Part shown: positions 46,880-54,546 of the stretch, one piece after another
Layout of the letters: each line of letters starts with the position of its first letter
Numbering within the stretch: the first letter of the stretch is position 1
Source: Lactobacillaceae bacterium L1_55_11
GTDB taxonomy: Bacteria; Bacillota; Bacilli; Lactobacillales; Lactobacillaceae
Length of the DNA: 64,000 nucleotides
Assembly (NCBI GenBank): GCA_029433155.1
Contig: JAQYTT010000004.1
Location: 1-64,000, forward strand
Direction: 5' to 3'
Position numbers and translations under genes: made by a program
The notes under the pieces: generated by a model
What the model was told of the DNA's origin: nothing
Database searches by the model: none
The model's input: the letters and a program-made list of their open reading frames with translations, nothing else

Positions 46880-48163
46880 CTAATGGCTGGCATGGGTCTG
46901 ATCCAGGAACTGGGCCAGGGTGTACCAGTGCTGGTCGTTACCAGCCACCATCCAAACTGGCTTCAGCTCAACCACACCGTCCCCGAGATCCTGCCAGTGA
47001 TAAGCCATGGTTAGTTGCTGGTAATTGCTGCCTTGACCCGCCTTATCGAGCTGGGAAGCAACTGTATCAGTACTAGGCAGGGTAACCTTTTGTTGGTCAC
47101 TAGGCAGGGGCAGCCCCAGGGTCGTCAGACGGTAGGTCGCCGTGATGGCAGCATCCTTGGTATTCAGAGCGACCGTGGCCGCGGCCTGGTCTCCATCGTA
47201 GAAAACCGGCACCTGGTCGATATAGGTCCTAAAATCAAAGGCCATCCCGTTTTGCCGGGATTCAAAGAAGCTGACCTTAGGTAGAATCTGCTTAAAGAGT
47301 TTCAGTTGGTCAGCCGCCGTATCCAAGCGTTGTTGGTAAGAACTCAGCCCAGCCCCCGGCAGGTGGTCCTGGAAGGTCAGGAGCTGGTGAACACTGTCGT
47401 AGGTAGTCTTTTGACCGCCGTACTTGTGAACATACTCGGTACCACTCTCAATTTGGCGGGTTGTAAACTGGCTGGCCGTTCCCAGCAGCTGGGCGTTGAA
47501 CTGATCAACATTACCCTGCTGAGACCGGTAAACGTAGGTCTTTAAGCGAATTTCCTTGGGCAAACTCACCATTAGCTGGTTGTTTAATTTTTTAAATTCA
47601 GCCGGATACTCGTTCCCTAAATGCTGGGACAGGCGCTGGGCCTTGGCGTAGTCAAAGGAACGGAAGCCCACCGTGGTCACCGTTTGGTGGCGACTATCAA
47701 TAAATTGGGCCACGTGCCCGTGTTTTAGGGGCAGGACCACGTAGTCAAAGTTAAAACCCTTACTCAGGTTGGACCCACTAATCTTGGTAAAGTACTTGAC
47801 CGGCACCAGGTCCGCATAGCGAAGAACCATGGTATCTGGCGTCTTTAACTTATTATCAAGGGTGCTAGTACTGACCGTGGTCACTTTACCGTTGGCCAGG
47901 TCGGCGGTATTGAGCAACTGATTAACCGCCTTTAGATTGTGGGCACTGATTCCCTGAACTAAGTCGGTGTTCCCCTTACTATCATTAACCAGGTACTGGG
48001 CAGCCCAGAAGGCCTGGGGCGTAGTGACCTGATCACTGCCACGATTTGGGAGGGCCCGGCTACCCGAAGCTTTGAAAACGGCGGCAGTCAAAACGATGGA
48101 GACCAGGATACTCAGAAGCAGCAGTAAGCGGATGAGGCGTAATTGCCAGTTATCCTTCTTCAT
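46880..48163 (-). CDS. yycH: WalK regulatory protein YycH
   Basis: Partner of YycI and WalK at the membrane. 427 residues with a single N-terminal helix (LIRLLLLLSILVSIVLTAAV) and a large external domain with strands typical of the family (TPDTMVLRYADLVPVKYF). The ATG at 48163 follows GGGGAGG and overlaps the walK end by 14 nt; the frame continues 7 codons upstream inside walK without a site. Membrane-linked regulators here stay coupled to walK expression. Confidence 0.9.
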   Translation of the reverse strand: MKKDNWQLRLIRLLLLLSILVSIVLTAAVFKASGSRALPNRGSDQVTTPQAFWAAQYLVNDSKGNTDLVQGISAHNLKAVNQLLNTADLANGKVTTVSTSTLDNKLKTPDTMVLRYADLVPVKYFTKISGSNLSKGFNFDYVVLPLKHGHVAQFIDSRHQTVTTVGFRSFDYAKAQRLSQHLGNEYPAEFKKLNNQLMVSLPKEIRLKTYVYRSQQGNVDQFNAQLLGTASQFTTRQIESGTEYVHKYGGQKTTYDSVHQLLTFQDHLPGAGLSSYQQRLDTAADQLKLFKQILPKVSFFESRQNGMAFDFRTYIDQVPVFYDGDQAAATVALNTKDAAITATYRLTTLGLPLPSDQQKVTLPSTDTVASQLDKAGQGSNYQQLTMAYHWQDLGDGVVELKPVWMVAGNDQHWYTLAQFLDQTHASH

Positions 48164-50027
48164 TCCAGTCCTCCCCTGCGTCAATCAAATCATCATCAAC
48201 AATTTTCAGGGCAATGTAGAAGGTCGAACCTTGGTTTTCAACCGATTCCACCCAAATGCGACCGTTGAAGCGTTCGACCATTTCCTTGGAAATAGCCAAG
48301 CCCAAACCAGTCCCACCTTGACGGCGGGACCGGGACTTGTCCACCCGGAAGAAACGGTTGAAGACGTTCTCCAAATCCTTGGCTGGAATACCCAGCCCCT
48401 GGTCGCTAATGCTAATAATGGCTTCCTGCCCGACCCGCTTGAGGGTGACGGTAATCGTGCCACCATCAGGCGAATACTTAAGGGCATTGTTCATCAGGTT
48501 ATCGAGAACCTGGGTGAACTTGTCGGGGTCAACTTCAACCCAGATATCTTCGTTAGCAAACTTACGGACAATCCGATACGGCTTGCCTGGGCACTGACCA
48601 TCGGCGGCCTGGTTTTCCAAAATCATGTCAAAGCGGTCGAGGACAAAGCCAAATAGAGAATTCAGGTTCACTAGCTCGGAGCGAACTTCCATGGTTCCCT
48701 GGTCCAGGCGGGATAACTCTAGCAGATCGTTAATCATCCGACTCATCCGCTCGGTTTCATCCTGGACCACGGCCAGGAAGTTCTGGGCCATTCGTTTATC
48801 ATCAACGGCACCATCGGCAAGGGCATCCACGTAAGAACGCACCGACGTCAGCGGGGTCCGCAACTCGTGGGACACGTTAGAAACAAACATCCGCCGCTCG
48901 GCGTCAATCTTTTCCTGCTCGGTGATATCGTGGAGGACCATGACAATTCCGCTAATTAGGCCGGATTTACGGCGAATCAAAGAAACGTAGGCCTGAACAA
49001 TTAGGTCCCGGCCGCCGCTAGATAGGTTAATTTGAAAGTCGGTCTGGTCATCTAAGAGATCAGCCAGGGTTTTCTCGCCTGATAGACCCAGAATCTCAAT
49101 AATACTGTGATTAAGGGCCTTTTGCGGGTTAATCCCGATGAATTTGGCGGCCGACTGGTTAATAATGGTGATCTGCCCCTGGCGGTTGGCCAGCAGGACC
49201 CCATCGGCCATATGCGTTAGCACCGAAGTTAACCGGTTTCGTTCGGCATTGACCGTTTCGGTTGAATCTTCAATGCGCTGAGACAGTTCGTTCACCGAGC
49301 GTCCCAACTGACCCAATTCATCACTACCAAAAATGTGGTTAACGGTCGTATAATCCCCGGCCGCAATCCGGGTTGTCTGCTTGTTAATAATTTCAATCGG
49401 GCGGGTAATCGTGCGGGCCAGGAACAGAGCCAGCAAAATACTAGCCATCAGGGCAATCAGTCCGGCAATGATAAAGAGCCACATGATCTTGTTGATGTTT
49501 TCATAAACCCGTTTGAGGCTGGCATCGACGATGGCGACCCCAATCACTTCCCGGCCGTTGCCCTTGGTCGTAATCTCCAGGGGCGTCGTCATGATTTCCT
49601 GACGTTCACTGTCCTTGCTGACGTTACGCGTCTTTAAATAGTTCGGGTCATTGGCCAGGGCCTTTAGGGCATTGGTATCTTCTGTTTTTTGGCCCCGGGT
49701 CTGCTGGCCATCAACCAGGCTACCGCGAATATTGCCGGACTTGTCAATAATCTGGACGTTTTGAATGACGTTGTTATTATAGCCGGCTAAGATTTCTTGG
49801 ATTTTGTCATTGCCGGCAGAGGTATCTGGGTCTTCTAGGGCCTGCTTAACCCGGTCAGTCACATACTTAGGCAAGGTAATCTGATCCTGGAAGGCAATCA
49901 GGTCCTGGCGCTCCATTTGGTGCACGAAAAAGACACCCAAGGATTCGAGTGTAAACAGCAGAAACATCACGAACACAAGGGCGATTCGAAAACGGATAGA
50001 TTGGACAAACTTTGTAATGACTTCCAT
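48150..50027 (-). CDS. walK: Sensor histidine kinase WalK (YycG)
   Basis: Essential kinase of the cell-wall homeostasis two-component system. 625 residues: TM helix 1 (about 12-32), an extracellular sensor (about 35-180), TM2 (about 183-205), HAMP (about 205-255), PAS (about 265-365), HisKA with the phospho-His in VSNVSHELRTPL near 385, and an ATPase domain with DQGLGIPA and GTGLGLAI. It phosphorylates WalR. The ribosome-binding site is weak. Overlap with yycH suggests coupled translation. Confidence 0.97.
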   Translation of the reverse strand: MEVITKFVQSIRFRIALVFVMFLLFTLESLGVFFVHQMERQDLIAFQDQITLPKYVTDRVKQALEDPDTSAGNDKIQEILAGYNNNVIQNVQIIDKSGNIRGSLVDGQQTRGQKTEDTNALKALANDPNYLKTRNVSKDSERQEIMTTPLEITTKGNGREVIGVAIVDASLKRVYENINKIMWLFIIAGLIALMASILLALFLARTITRPIEIINKQTTRIAAGDYTTVNHIFGSDELGQLGRSVNELSQRIEDSTETVNAERNRLTSVLTHMADGVLLANRQGQITIINQSAAKFIGINPQKALNHSIIEILGLSGEKTLADLLDDQTDFQINLSSGGRDLIVQAYVSLIRRKSGLISGIVMVLHDITEQEKIDAERRMFVSNVSHELRTPLTSVRSYVDALADGAVDDKRMAQNFLAVVQDETERMSRMINDLLELSRLDQGTMEVRSELVNLNSLFGFVLDRFDMILENQAADGQCPGKPYRIVRKFANEDIWVEVDPDKFTQVLDNLMNNALKYSPDGGTITVTLKRVGQEAIISISDQGLGIPAKDLENVFNRFFRVDKSRSRRQGGTGLGLAISKEMVERFNGRIWVESVENQGSTFYIALKIVDDDLIDAGEDWNEEG

Positions 50028-52012: not shown

Positions 52013-53653
52013 TCAGGTATTGACCGTAACGGTCCGTTCGCCTGGAATCGTTAAATCATCGTGGTCAATGTAGACCACTGTCTTGTGCCGGTCCTGGTGC
52101 AGGTAGGCCATCAAGGACATGATGATGTCCTTGGTTTGGACGTCCAGGTCGGAGGTGATTTCATCAAAGAAGTAGAAATCACAGTCAGCAATCAAGGCCC
52201 GGGCAATTGCCAGGCGCTGGCGCTGACCACCGGAGAAGTTGTCCCCGTTTTCAGCCACCTCAGTATCCAGCTGGTTGGGCAGGTCCTGGACAAACCAGTC
52301 CATCTTAACCTTATGCAGGGCATCCCAGATGTCAGCATCCGGTACCTGGTCGGGCTGATCAAAGCCTAAAAGCAGGTTATCCCGGATGGTCCCTGGCAGC
52401 AGGGAGCTGTTTTGGTCAACAAAGGCCAGGTGCTTACGGAAGGTGAAGATATTGACCTCGTTGCGGTCGATGCCGTTGATGTAAAAGTGACCGCGATTGA
52501 GGTCGTACATGCCCGATAGAATCTTTAGGATGGTCGACTTACCACTCCCGTTCTTACCACGGAGACGGACCAGTTCACCAGCACTGATTTTCAGGTGGGG
52601 AATGTAAAGGCCCTGTCCACTTGGATAAGAGAAGGAGCCGTCATCAATTTCAACGGACTCAATTTCCTTAATGTCAATCTGATCCGGCCGGGCAGTTTCA
52701 ATTGGCAAGTTAAAGAGGCGATCCAAGTTCTTAATCACGTCACGAACCTTGGCCATGTTGGTGTAGTTCCCCGTCAAACTGCTGATTGGCGAAATCAACT
52801 GGAAGGTATACATCACATAGGCCACCAGGGCCCCGACGGTCATCGACTTGTTGGCGATCGAGAGACCACCCAGGCCGATAATGGCAAAGAGGGCCATCAT
52901 CATGATGATGTTAACCAAGGGGTTTAGGAGGGCAATTAGGCGGAGCTGCTTTTGCGCCACTCGGTAAATCTTGTCAAAGATTTGGTCCCCGAGCTTAGTC
53001 GTCTTGGGCTCAGCCCCATAAGACTTAATCACGATGTCAGACTGGAGAATGCTAACAGCCATCTGGTTGGCATCGGCGGTTAGCTTTTGGGTCTGGGAGA
53101 AGTAACCCGAAATCTTCCGTGAAATCATGGCCACTAAGAAAGCCAAAATCGGAATTAAGATGATTAGGGTCAGGGTCAACTTGGCGTTGAGATAAACCAG
53201 CATGGCAAAGGATCCCACGATGGTAATCAGACCGGTGATTAATTGGGGCATCGAACTTGAAAGAACTTCGTAAATCAAATTCGTATCATTAACTAAGCGG
53301 CTAGCTAAGATACCCGAAGAGTTTTCGTTGAGGTTTTTATATGAGAAATAATTATAACGTTGCCACAATTTTTCACGGATGTGCCGGACGGCCTGGTTGG
53401 CCACGTTCCCCAGCATGTAGTAAGAGATCACACCGGTCACCAAGTCGAGGACCAGCAGAGTGATTGGCAGGGCAATCGGCAGCCCAGCCCGGTTACCGCT
53501 TAAGAAGCCGTCGACTAGGCCCTTTAGGGTTGAACTAAAAAGCAAGGCGTTTAGGGACGCAAAGACTGTCAAGAATAAGGCGAGGTAGAATTGTTTAAAG
53601 TTTATCCCCGCATATTTTTTAATAAAGGCAATTAAGCCGGATTGGTTTTCCAT
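52013..53653 (-). CDS. Exporter-type ABC transporter (membrane and ATPase domains fused) next to the peptide genes
   Basis: 546 residues. The N-terminal half (about 20-300) has six helices, starting FYLALFLTVFASLNALLF. The ATPase half has Walker A RGKNGSGKST near 369, signature NFSGGQRQR near 472 and Walker B FYFFDEITSD near 499. There is no C39 peptidase domain, so any cargo would be exported without leader cleavage by this protein. It acts as a homodimer by family. It lies directly downstream of three copies of a 40-residue peptide gene, suggesting peptide export or self-protection (inference). No Shine-Dalgarno: TGTTATAAT ends 7 nt before the ATG, so its mRNA is probably leaderless. Confidence 0.9.
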   Translation of the reverse strand: MENQSGLIAFIKKYAGINFKQFYLALFLTVFASLNALLFSSTLKGLVDGFLSGNRAGLPIALPITLLVLDLVTGVISYYMLGNVANQAVRHIREKLWQRYNYFSYKNLNENSSGILASRLVNDTNLIYEVLSSSMPQLITGLITIVGSFAMLVYLNAKLTLTLIILIPILAFLVAMISRKISGYFSQTQKLTADANQMAVSILQSDIVIKSYGAEPKTTKLGDQIFDKIYRVAQKQLRLIALLNPLVNIIMMMALFAIIGLGGLSIANKSMTVGALVAYVMYTFQLISPISSLTGNYTNMAKVRDVIKNLDRLFNLPIETARPDQIDIKEIESVEIDDGSFSYPSGQGLYIPHLKISAGELVRLRGKNGSGKSTILKILSGMYDLNRGHFYINGIDRNEVNIFTFRKHLAFVDQNSSLLPGTIRDNLLLGFDQPDQVPDADIWDALHKVKMDWFVQDLPNQLDTEVAENGDNFSGGQRQRLAIARALIADCDFYFFDEITSDLDVQTKDIIMSLMAYLHQDRHKTVVYIDHDDLTIPGERTVTVNT

Positions 53654-53660
53654 ACTATGT

Positions 53661-53680
53661 ATTATAACAGGTCAGACCTG
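53661..53680 (-). promoter_or_regulatory. Leaderless promoter and palindromic operator of the ABC exporter
   Basis: Extended -10 TGTTATAAT (TATAAT at 53661-53666) on the minus strand, 7 nt from the start codon. A perfect palindrome CAGGTC-A-GACCTG (53668-53680) sits immediately upstream in the -35/-10 spacer. Its core GGTCWGACC is shared with the gntR promoter at 58890-58902. Confidence 0.65.
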
Positions 53681-53694
53681 CTTTGAGTTTTCCC

Positions 53695-53726
53695 GTGCTA
53701 GCCTTAGGCCTGAGCCTTGCTAGCAC
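53695..53726. promoter_or_regulatory. 32-bp nested palindrome upstream of the exporter
   Basis: GTGCTAGC (53695-53702) and GCTAGCAC (53719-53726) are perfect complements, with an inner GGC/GCC pair around TCAG. No T-run follows, so it is more likely an operator or a recombination-type site than a terminator. Confidence 0.55.
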
Positions 53727-53757
53727 TGATTAAGTAAGTTAACAGGAGCGTAATTAT

Positions 53758-53800
53758 TTCAATAAAAAAAACTAACACCCGAGGGCGCTAGTTCTTTTAT
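53758..53800 (-). terminator. Terminator of peptide gene 1
   Basis: ACTAGCGCCC with GGGTGTTAGT forms a near-perfect stem with two mismatched positions, then eight T on the minus strand. Confidence 0.8.
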
Positions 53801-53826
53801 GAAGGTTCAAATCAAGAAAGTAAATC

Positions 53827-53949
53827 TTACTTGCCGAACAAACGCAGGATGAATGCACCAACGTTAGCCAATGGGGCGTTGTTTGAGTTACTTACGTGAG
53901 TAGTGTTTGATGAACCAGGCAAGATGTGCCAGAAATCAATTGAAAACAT
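53827..53949 (-). CDS. 40-residue peptide, copy 1 of three
   Basis: Frame opening MFSIDFWHILPGSS, middle NTTHVSNSNN, closing VGAFILRLFGK. AAAGGAG lies 10 nt before the ATG, and a terminator follows the stop. There is no Cys, no double-glycine leader and no signal peptide; the two ends are hydrophobic and the middle is Asn/Ser/Thr-rich. It is nearly identical to copies 2 and 3. The only central change is Gly in place of Phe in ANVGAF. Candidate secreted peptide (bacteriocin, pheromone or surface-active); function unknown. Confidence 0.82.
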   Translation of the reverse strand: MFSIDFWHILPGSSNTTHVSNSNNAPLANVGAFILRLFGK

Positions 53950-54035
53950 GTATATTTATCTCCTTTCAACAGAATATATAAAAGCTTAACATGGTAATTT
54001 ATAAAATTCAAATTACAGAATTGTTACAAAGAATA

Positions 54036-54064
54036 ATAAAAAACCGGACCCACAAAGGGTCCAG
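54036..54064 (-). terminator. Terminator of peptide gene 2
   Basis: GGACCC/GGGTCC stem with a five-base loop, then GG and T6 on the minus strand. Confidence 0.88.
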
Positions 54065-54099
54065 CATTATTAGTGTTAGTTAACACCAGTAAGTAAATC

Positions 54100-54222
54100 T
54101 TACTTACCGAACAAACGCAAAACAAATGCGAAAACGTTAGCCAATGGGCTGTTGTTTGAGTTGCTTACGTGAGTAGTGTTAGCTGAACCAGGCAAGATGT
54201 GCCAGAAATCCAATGAAAACAT
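54100..54222 (-). CDS. 40-residue peptide, copy 2 of three
   Basis: Opens MFSLDFWHILPGSA, then NTTHVSNSNN, and ends VFAFVLRLFGK. Same length as its sisters. AAAGGAG lies 8 nt before the ATG. A good promoter (54255-54284) and terminator (54036-54064) flank it, so it is a complete transcription unit. Differences from copy 3 are confined to Ala/Ser at position 14 and Val/Leu in the C-terminal helix, the pattern expected of a protein under selection. Confidence 0.85.
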   Translation of the reverse strand: MFSLDFWHILPGSANTTHVSNSNNSPLANVFAFVLRLFGK

Positions 54223-54254
54223 GTGTTTAGCTCCTTTCTCTACAAGATAGGCTA

Positions 54255-54284
54255 ATTATACCATTAAATTAGTAGAAATGGCAA
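54255..54284 (-). promoter_or_regulatory. Promoter of peptide gene 2
   Basis: TTGCCA (54279-54284), 18 nt, perfect TATAAT (54255-54260). Confidence 0.75.
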
Positions 54285-54303
54285 CACAAGGCCAATATAA
54301 TAA

Positions 54304-54335
54304 AAGAATTGGACTCAAAAAGCCCAATTCTTAAC
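54304..54335 (-). terminator. Terminator of peptide gene 3
   Basis: AAGAATTGG with CCAATTCTT, a nine-base perfect stem around a T-rich loop, then TTTTATTAT on the minus strand. Confidence 0.8.
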
Positions 54336-54361
54336 CTAGTCTTAATAACTAGAATTTAATC

Positions 54362-54484
54362 TTACTTGCCAAACAAACGCAGCAAGAAAGCAAATACGTT
54401 AGCCAATGGGCTGTTGTTTGAGTTGCTTACGTGAGTAGTGTTTGATGAACCAGGCAAGATGTGCCAGAAATCTAATGAGAACAT
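54362..54484 (-). CDS. 40-residue peptide, copy 3 of three
   Basis: Opens MFSLDFWHILPGSS, then NTTHVSNSNN, and ends VFAFLLRLFGK. AAAGGAG lies 9 nt before the ATG. Its promoter (54518-54546) has a consensus -35. At DNA level the central 60 nt differ from the other copies at only a few, partly silent, sites (AGT/AGC for Ser), while the spacers between copies do not align, which argues that the peptide is what is conserved. Encoded just downstream of the HAD phosphatase. Confidence 0.85.
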   Translation of the reverse strand: MFSLDFWHILPGSSNTTHVSNSNNSPLANVFAFLLRLFGK

Positions 54485-54517: not shown

Positions 54518-54546
54518 AGTGTATAACGAATCCTTTTATATGTCAA
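54518..54546 (-). promoter_or_regulatory. Promoter of peptide gene 3
   Basis: TTGACA (54541-54546), 17 nt, TACACT (54518-54523). Confidence 0.75.

What the first reader, a model, noticed from the sequence alone, without database searches (positions are those of the whole stretch)
52013..54484. Three-copy 40-residue peptide locus with a dedicated ABC exporter
The sequence shows three tandem minus-strand frames of exactly 123 nt (53827-53949, 54100-54222, 54362-54484). Each has AAAGGAG 8-10 nt before the ATG and a terminator after the stop. The products share MFS(I/L)DFWHILPGS, then NTTHVSNSNN, then RLFGK at the end. Substitutions are conservative and the spacers do not align. Next downstream on the same strand is a fused membrane/ATPase exporter without a C39 peptidase. 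No Cys, double-Gly leader or signal peptide is present, which excludes classical lanthipeptides and class IIa/b bacteriocins. By inference this is a leaderless multi-peptide bacteriocin, a pheromone or a surface-active peptide with its exporter/immunity protein. I do not recognise the family.
Basis: partly seen in the sequence, partly recalled or inferred. Interest (0 to 1): 0.88.

Follow-up and report, generated by a model that had tools for sequence, protein, structure and literature searches.

The report
Multi-copy leaderless peptides with ABC exporter
A small group of lactic acid bacteria, including the well-studied Lactiplantibacillus plantarum group, carries 2 to 10 copies of a gene for a tiny membrane-seeking peptide, apparently made in bulk and always next to one particular kind of export pump; no paper or annotation we could search names it, so its job is still to be tested.

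Summary
Three 123-nt ORFs with strong ribosome sites sit in separate transcription units and are followed by an intact C39-less ABC exporter. The peptides are real and under strong constraint: all three are identical to those of a sister species that differs by 4-5% in the flanking genes, and their codon usage matches that of the most highly expressed gene nearby. The same peptide family (invariant H-x-LPG core, N24, F33, L35; 70 distinct sequences, no Cys) occurs in Convivina (2 copies) and in 12 of 21 Lactiplantibacillus species (3-10 copies seen), and nowhere else in about 1,200 genomes sampled. All three genera carry it beside a member of one strongly supported ABC-exporter clade. In Lactiplantibacillus the exporter is present in exactly the 12 genomes that have the peptides. 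In the window lineage, sister genera show the same gene order without the cassette. Nothing in Pfam, NCBIfam, the PDB or open-access papers names it; one 'phage' PHROG that matches is host DNA caught at prophage edges. Net charge (-2 to +1) and high copy number fit cationic leaderless bacteriocins poorly. My best reading is a bulk-secreted amphipathic peptide that works like staphylococcal PSM-beta/SLUSH peptides but is unrelated in sequence. Export and activity are inferred, not shown.

The parts
54362..54484 (-). Peptide copy A, MFSLDFWHILPGSSNTTHVSNSNNSPLANVFAFLLRLFGK
   Evidence: identical in sister species G039
54100..54222 (-). Peptide copy B, MFSLDFWHILPGSANTTHVSNSNNSPLANVFAFVLRLFGK
53827..53949 (-). 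Peptide copy C, MFSIDFWHILPGSSNTTHVSNSNNAPLANVGAFILRLFGK
52013..53653 (-). ABC exporter half-transporter (membrane domain + ATPase, no C39 peptidase); conserved partner of the peptides
   Evidence: Pfam ABC_membrane 1.5e-35 and ABC_tran 1.8e-27; nearest solved relatives BmrA and MsbA; clade with Lactiplantibacillus peptide-adjacent exporters
54518..54546 (-). Promoter-like site of copy A (TTGACA-17-TACACT)
   Evidence: consensus match only
54255..54284 (-). Promoter-like site of copy B (TTGCCA-18-TATAAT with TG before the second hexamer)
   Evidence: consensus match only
54304..54332 (-). Terminator after copy A
54043..54065 (-). Terminator after copy B
53770..53793 (-). Terminator-like hairpin after copy C, followed by a T-run; separates the peptides from the exporter gene
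   Evidence: read from the sequence; not called by the scan
53661..53680 (-). TATAAT 7 nt before the exporter ATG, with palindrome CAGGTCAGACCTG just upstream; possible regulated, near-leaderless promoter
   Evidence: sequence; conserved in G039, not in Convivina

Best explanation
The cassette makes and exports a bulk, leaderless, amphipathic peptide. Shown: several near-identical genes encode 40-47-aa peptides with an invariant H-x-L-P-G-[ST] core, a polar Ser/Thr/Asn stretch and a hydrophobic C-terminal segment predicted to be an amphipathic helix; coding sequence and codon choice are under strong constraint; and the genes are paired with one clade of C39-less ABC exporters. Inferred: the peptides are translated in large amounts, are pumped out unprocessed by the neighbouring homodimeric ABC exporter, and act outside or on the membrane by insertion of the C-terminal helix. 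The likely effect is surface-active (spreading, cell-surface or biofilm conditioning, mild membrane activity against competitors), working like staphylococcal PSM-beta/SLUSH peptides. I put about 0.85 on 'expressed peptide family functionally paired with this exporter' and about 0.45 on the surfactant-like role.
For: Family and pairing: peptides in the window genus G000/G039 (3 copies), Convivina (2) and 12/21 Lactiplantibacillus (3-10 seen). The exporter is adjacent in the first two genera and 0.6-0.8 kb away on the same contig in 10 of 12 Lactiplantibacillus. The exporter ortholog (80-100% id) is in exactly those 12 and absent from the other 9. Peptide-adjacent exporters fall in one clade at 100/99 support. 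Empty site in G001; Tpx-like gene at the junction in G016 and G007. Bulk expression: codon index 0.71 versus window median 0.39, null 0.356 +/- 0.036, 0 of 2000; phosphoketolase 0.735. Constraint: 93-95% aa identity for the best copies versus Convivina, where the exporter has 69%, HAD 63% and PRPP synthetase 87%; synonymous change at 13-19% of conserved codons versus 32% in Xpk and 52-60% elsewhere. Amphipathic C-terminal segment: moment 0.52, 1.3% of shuffles as high; predicted helix 24-39, last ten residues pLDDT 84. Net charge -2 to +1 and no Cys in the family.
Against: No expression, secretion or activity data. The structure model is weak (mean pLDDT 65.6, pTM 0.30). In Lactiplantibacillus the exporter, peptides and an SdgA/GtfA-like glycosyltransferase are gained and lost as one island, so co-occurrence there does not single out the exporter. 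The exporter clade also contains genus g13, which has no recognisable peptide array. The exporter has no evident ribosome-binding site in the window. PSM-beta peptides themselves use a different exporter, PmtABCD (PMC5585272).
Confidence: 0.45

Rival explanations
1. Multi-peptide leaderless bacteriocin (works like aureocin A70 / garvicin KS): the peptides kill related bacteria and the ABC protein exports them and confers self-protection.
For: Same overall plan: 3-4 short leaderless paralogs near conserved accessory genes (for the known group). No leader, no Cys, amphipathic C-terminus. Gained and lost as a cassette.
Against: Net charge -2 to +1, whereas that group is cationic as I know it. No Pfam or NCBIfam match. 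No immunity gene in the window cassette. Very strong conservation, even at synonymous sites, is not typical of bacteriocins.
Confidence: 0.25
2. Precursor peptides cleaved after the invariant LPG: residues 1-12 are a recognition leader and the Ser/Thr/Asn-rich remainder is the secreted core, possibly glycosylated in Lactiplantibacillus by the neighbouring SdgA/GtfA-like enzyme.
For: H8, L10, P11 and G12 are invariant in 70 peptides. A Ser/Thr-rich stretch follows. The glycosyltransferase co-occurs in the same 12 Lactiplantibacillus genomes.
Against: The exporter has no C39 peptidase and no other protease belongs to the cassette. The glycosyltransferase ortholog is missing from the window genome and Convivina (28% partial match only). 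In Lactiplantibacillus a KxYKxGKxW/LPXTG mucin-binding protein is the more obvious glycosylation substrate.
Confidence: 0.15
3. Signalling peptide (pheromone) with its exporter.
For: Short, presumably exported peptide with a strongly conserved motif.
Against: No receptor, kinase or Rgg-type regulator within the cassette. Up to ten copies and top-level codon adaptation are not needed for a signal. WalK/WalR nearby are conserved housekeeping genes that are also present without the cassette.
Confidence: 0.06
4. Type I toxin-like small membrane proteins that stay inside the cell, each with its own control.
For: Several near-identical monocistronic copies with hydrophobic segments, as in Ldr or Ibs arrays (from memory).
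Against: Codon usage for high expression. Operon-like arrays of 8-10 copies in Lactiplantibacillus without terminators in between. The ABC exporter partner is conserved. No Rfam match.
Confidence: 0.05

Closest known systems
Staphylococcal PSM-beta / SLUSH / gonococcal growth inhibitor peptides (Staph_haemo family)
   Same: About 44 aa, no signal peptide, two to six related tandem copies, exported by an ABC transporter (PMC5585272)
   Different: No sequence match (no Pfam family at E up to 10). The exporter there is the multi-gene PmtABCD; here a single BmrA/MsbA-like protein lies next to the peptides. Here there is an invariant HxLPG core and up to 10 copies.
Multi-peptide leaderless bacteriocins (aureocin A70, garvicin KS, cereucins)
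   Same: Three to four leaderless paralogous short peptides in one locus next to conserved accessory genes (PMC6131525)
   Different: No profile match, neutral to acidic rather than cationic, no immunity gene in the window cassette, longer Ser/Thr/Asn-rich middle
BmrA / MsbA-type homodimeric ABC exporters
   Same: Domain order and nearest solved relatives (BmrA 2.6e-78, MsbA 1.5e-57)
   Different: A separate clade that is peptide-adjacent in three genera; substrate unknown
phrog_32203 (PHROGs, unknown function)
   Same: All 18 aligned family members match, best E 4.7e-34
   Different: Not shown to be a phage gene: in IMG/VR contigs the peptides lie at the contig edge beside host LPXTG, GtfB-like and MarR genes, with a prophage integrase further on in the contig examined

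Membership tests
PSM-beta / Staph_haemo | Match to the Staph_haemo sequence family | tested here: not met
   No Pfam family for any of 18 members at E up to 10
PSM-beta / Staph_haemo | About 44-aa leaderless amphipathic peptides in several tandem copies | tested here: met
   40-47 aa, 2-10 copies, amphipathic C-terminal helix
PSM-beta / Staph_haemo | Export by PmtABCD | tested here: not met
   The partner is a single-polypeptide BmrA/MsbA-like exporter; Pmt itself was not searched for elsewhere in the genome
PSM-beta / Staph_haemo | Surfactant or cytolytic activity | not testable with these tools
   Needs peptide chemistry
Multi-peptide leaderless bacteriocin | No leader or signal peptide; several related short peptides in one locus | tested here: met
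   cleavage after LPG cannot be excluded by sequence
Multi-peptide leaderless bacteriocin | Cationic peptide | tested here: not met
   Net charge -2 to +1 over 71 peptides; window copies +1. That the known group is cationic is from my own knowledge.
Multi-peptide leaderless bacteriocin | Sequence similarity to aureocin A70 / garvicin KS or other curated bacteriocin families | tested here: inconclusive
   No NCBIfam or Pfam hit; no direct alignment with those peptides was made
Multi-peptide leaderless bacteriocin | Antibacterial activity | not testable with these tools
   Needs an inhibition assay
Double-glycine class II / lanthipeptide precursors | GG leader with C39 peptidase-transporter, or Cys/Ser/Thr core with Lan enzymes | tested here: not met
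   No GG leader, no Cys in 71 peptides, no C39 domain in the transporter
Phage protein family | Encoded within phage genomes | tested here: not met
   No match in 50,697 phage records; IMG/VR hits are host flanks of prophages

The most novel reading that the evidence does not exclude
A new family of bulk-secreted, multi-copy, codon-optimised amphipathic peptides of lactobacilli with its own clade of ABC exporter: a Lactobacillaceae counterpart of staphylococcal PSMs that arose independently and shapes the cell surface or neighbouring bacteria.
Probability: 0.4. Interest if true: 0.78.

Novelty: new variant of a known kind. Interest (0 to 1): 0.62.

Why it matters
Species of the L. plantarum group are among the most used food and probiotic bacteria, yet many carry arrays of up to 10 copies of an unnamed peptide that the window lineage appears to make at the level of its central carbon enzymes. 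If the peptides are surface-active or antibacterial, this would be a major secreted product missed because its genes are only 40-47 codons long. The exporter is a single gene in a tractable organism, so peptide export by a leader-independent ABC transporter becomes easy to test.

Tried and rejected
Phage origin: phrog_32203 matches, but IMG/VR contigs show host flanks at a prophage edge. Plasmid carriage: no credible hit. Weak hits in other genera and phyla (such as L019-L032, L043-L070, L196-L199): they contain stops, or lack a start and ribosome site in those inspected, so I take them as chance. Glycosylation as a core feature: the glycosyltransferase ortholog is absent from the window genome and Convivina. 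Genus g13 exporters as further peptide loci: no array beside G107 or G080; one unrelated-looking 31-aa ORF in G012. Riboswitch or structured RNA in the spacers: none. Text search for the peptide sequences and for small multi-copy peptides in L. plantarum: nothing. LPGT as a sortase motif: considered, but the fifth residue is H or S and 12 polar residues separate it from the hydrophobic segment. A fold search was not run because the model is a single low-confidence helix.

Full report
What is there. On the minus strand, three ORFs of 123 nt (54362-54484, 54100-54222, 53827-53949) encode 40-aa peptides that are 90-95% identical to the first. AAAGGAG precedes each ATG by 8-10 nt. Copies A and B have promoter-like sites of 10 and 11 of 12 matches and called terminators; a third hairpin with a T-run follows copy C (read). 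Promoter-like sites are no more frequent in the region than in shuffles, terminator-like ones are (10 versus 3.0 +/- 1.7). A separate gene, 52013-53653, encodes a 546-aa ABC exporter with membrane and ATPase domains and no C39 peptidase; its nearest solved relatives are BmrA and MsbA. Flanks are ordinary: HAD hydrolase and phosphoketolase on one side, PRPP synthetase and WalR/WalK on the other (the names other than HAD are from my reading of the sequences).

Real genes, made in bulk. Between the window and sister species G039, flanking genes differ by 4-5% of bases, but the 369 peptide bases do not differ at all. Between the window and Convivina intestini, the best copies are 93-95% identical, against 69% for the exporter, 63% for the HAD and 87% for PRPP synthetase. 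Only 13-19% of conserved codons changed synonymously, against 32% in phosphoketolase and 52-60% in the other genes. With phosphoketolase as reference, the three peptides have a codon index of 0.71; the window median is 0.39, and random synonymous coding of the same peptides gives 0.356 +/- 0.036, with 0 of 2000 as high. I infer high expression; this is not measured. Within the window, A versus B has dN 0.027 and dS 0.60; comparisons with C are less clear (dN 0.085-0.091, dS 0.24-0.33).

A family. Searches with one peptide and then with a profile found relatives in only three genera of Lactobacillaceae: the window genus (2 of 2 genomes, 3 copies each), Convivina (2 copies) and Lactiplantibacillus (12 of 21 genomes; 3-10 matches each, some cut by contig ends). 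Samples of 395 genomes of the order and 398 of the phylum gave no further convincing case. Seventy distinct peptides share M1, H8, L10, P11, G12, N24, F33 and L35 without exception. None has Cys, and net charge runs from -2 to +1. [quoted passage not shown] AlphaFold2 gives one helix, residues 24-39, confident only in the last ten residues.

The exporter belongs with the peptides. In the window genus and Convivina it is the next gene. In 10 of 12 Lactiplantibacillus genomes it lies 0.6-0.8 kb upstream of the array on the same contig; in G311 and G341 the two are on different contigs. Within Lactiplantibacillus the ortholog (80-100% identity) is present in exactly the 12 genomes with peptides; the other nine have only 34-36% paralogs or weaker. 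If independent, that would be 1 in 293,930, but species are related and the island, including a glycosyltransferase, comes and goes together. The window exporter's best match in G257 is the peptide-adjacent one (296 bits; next best 230). A maximum-likelihood tree puts all peptide-adjacent exporters in one clade at 100/99 support. That clade also holds three proteins of genus g13, nested inside it, without a recognisable peptide array; so either the peptides were lost or replaced there, or the pairing arose twice. Outside Lactiplantibacillus the evidence is cleaner: three sister genera have the same gene order, with nothing (G001) or a thiol-peroxidase-like gene (G016, G007) in place of the cassette (the Tpx name is from my reading of the sequence).

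What it is not. No Pfam or NCBIfam model matches any of 18 members. phrog_32203 matches all of them, but no phage record does, and in IMG/VR contigs the peptides sit at the edge next to the host LPXTG, GtfB-like and MarR genes, with an integrase further along in the contig examined. It is therefore a host family caught at prophage borders. No open-access paper held contains the peptide sequences.

How it probably works. A highly expressed, leaderless, amphipathic peptide paired with an exporter suggests bulk export and action at membranes or the cell surface. The closest functional parallel is PSM-beta/SLUSH: about 44 aa, no signal peptide, two to six tandem copies, ABC-exported (PMC5585272). 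Sequence membership fails and the exporter type differs. Multi-peptide leaderless bacteriocins (PMC6131525) share the architecture, but neutral charge, extreme conservation and lack of an immunity gene in the window cassette argue against them. Processing after LPG, signalling and type I toxin readings are less likely, for the reasons given under rivals. Export, abundance and activity are all inferred and need the tests listed.

Verdict. The bacteriocin label is not supported. I rate it a new variant of a known kind (leaderless, multi-copy, ABC-exported amphipathic peptides), interest 0.62.

Noticed in passing
window 53651-53680: The exporter gene has no evident ribosome-binding site; TATAAT ends 7 nt before its ATG and a perfect palindrome CAGGTCAGACCTG lies just upstream. 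This could be a repressed promoter with a leaderless transcript; it is conserved in G039 but not in Convivina.
   Followed up: partly
L083 4616-4711: Genus g13 genome G012 has a same-clade exporter beside a convergent 31-aa ORF, MSFSNVLHFILNILGFTFGWNNGSKINGKDV, with a good ribosome site and a hairpin after it; possibly a divergent peptide.
   Followed up: partly
L164 1-8111 and L160-L168: Predicted prophage contigs of Lactiplantibacillus in IMG/VR include the host peptide island at one edge, so a host peptide family has entered a phage protein library (phrog_32203).
   Followed up: yes
L039 858-14061: In Lactiplantibacillus the array sits in an island with a MacB-like ABC protein, an SdgA/GtfA-like O-glycosyltransferase, a KxYKxGKxW/LPXTG MucBP surface protein, a 670-aa protein of no known family and a MarR regulator; the glycosyltransferase follows the peptides in all 12 genomes.
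   Followed up: partly
L157 2835-3490 and L158 2605-3236: The HAD-PRPP synthetase junction is a turnover spot: empty in G001, a thiol-peroxidase-like gene in G016 and G007, the peptide cassette in the window genus and Convivina.
   Followed up: partly
L034 12172-13374 compared with window 48150-50027: Next to a well-conserved WalR (87%), the Convivina histidine kinase is much shorter and only about 34-38% identical to the window WalK.
   Followed up: no
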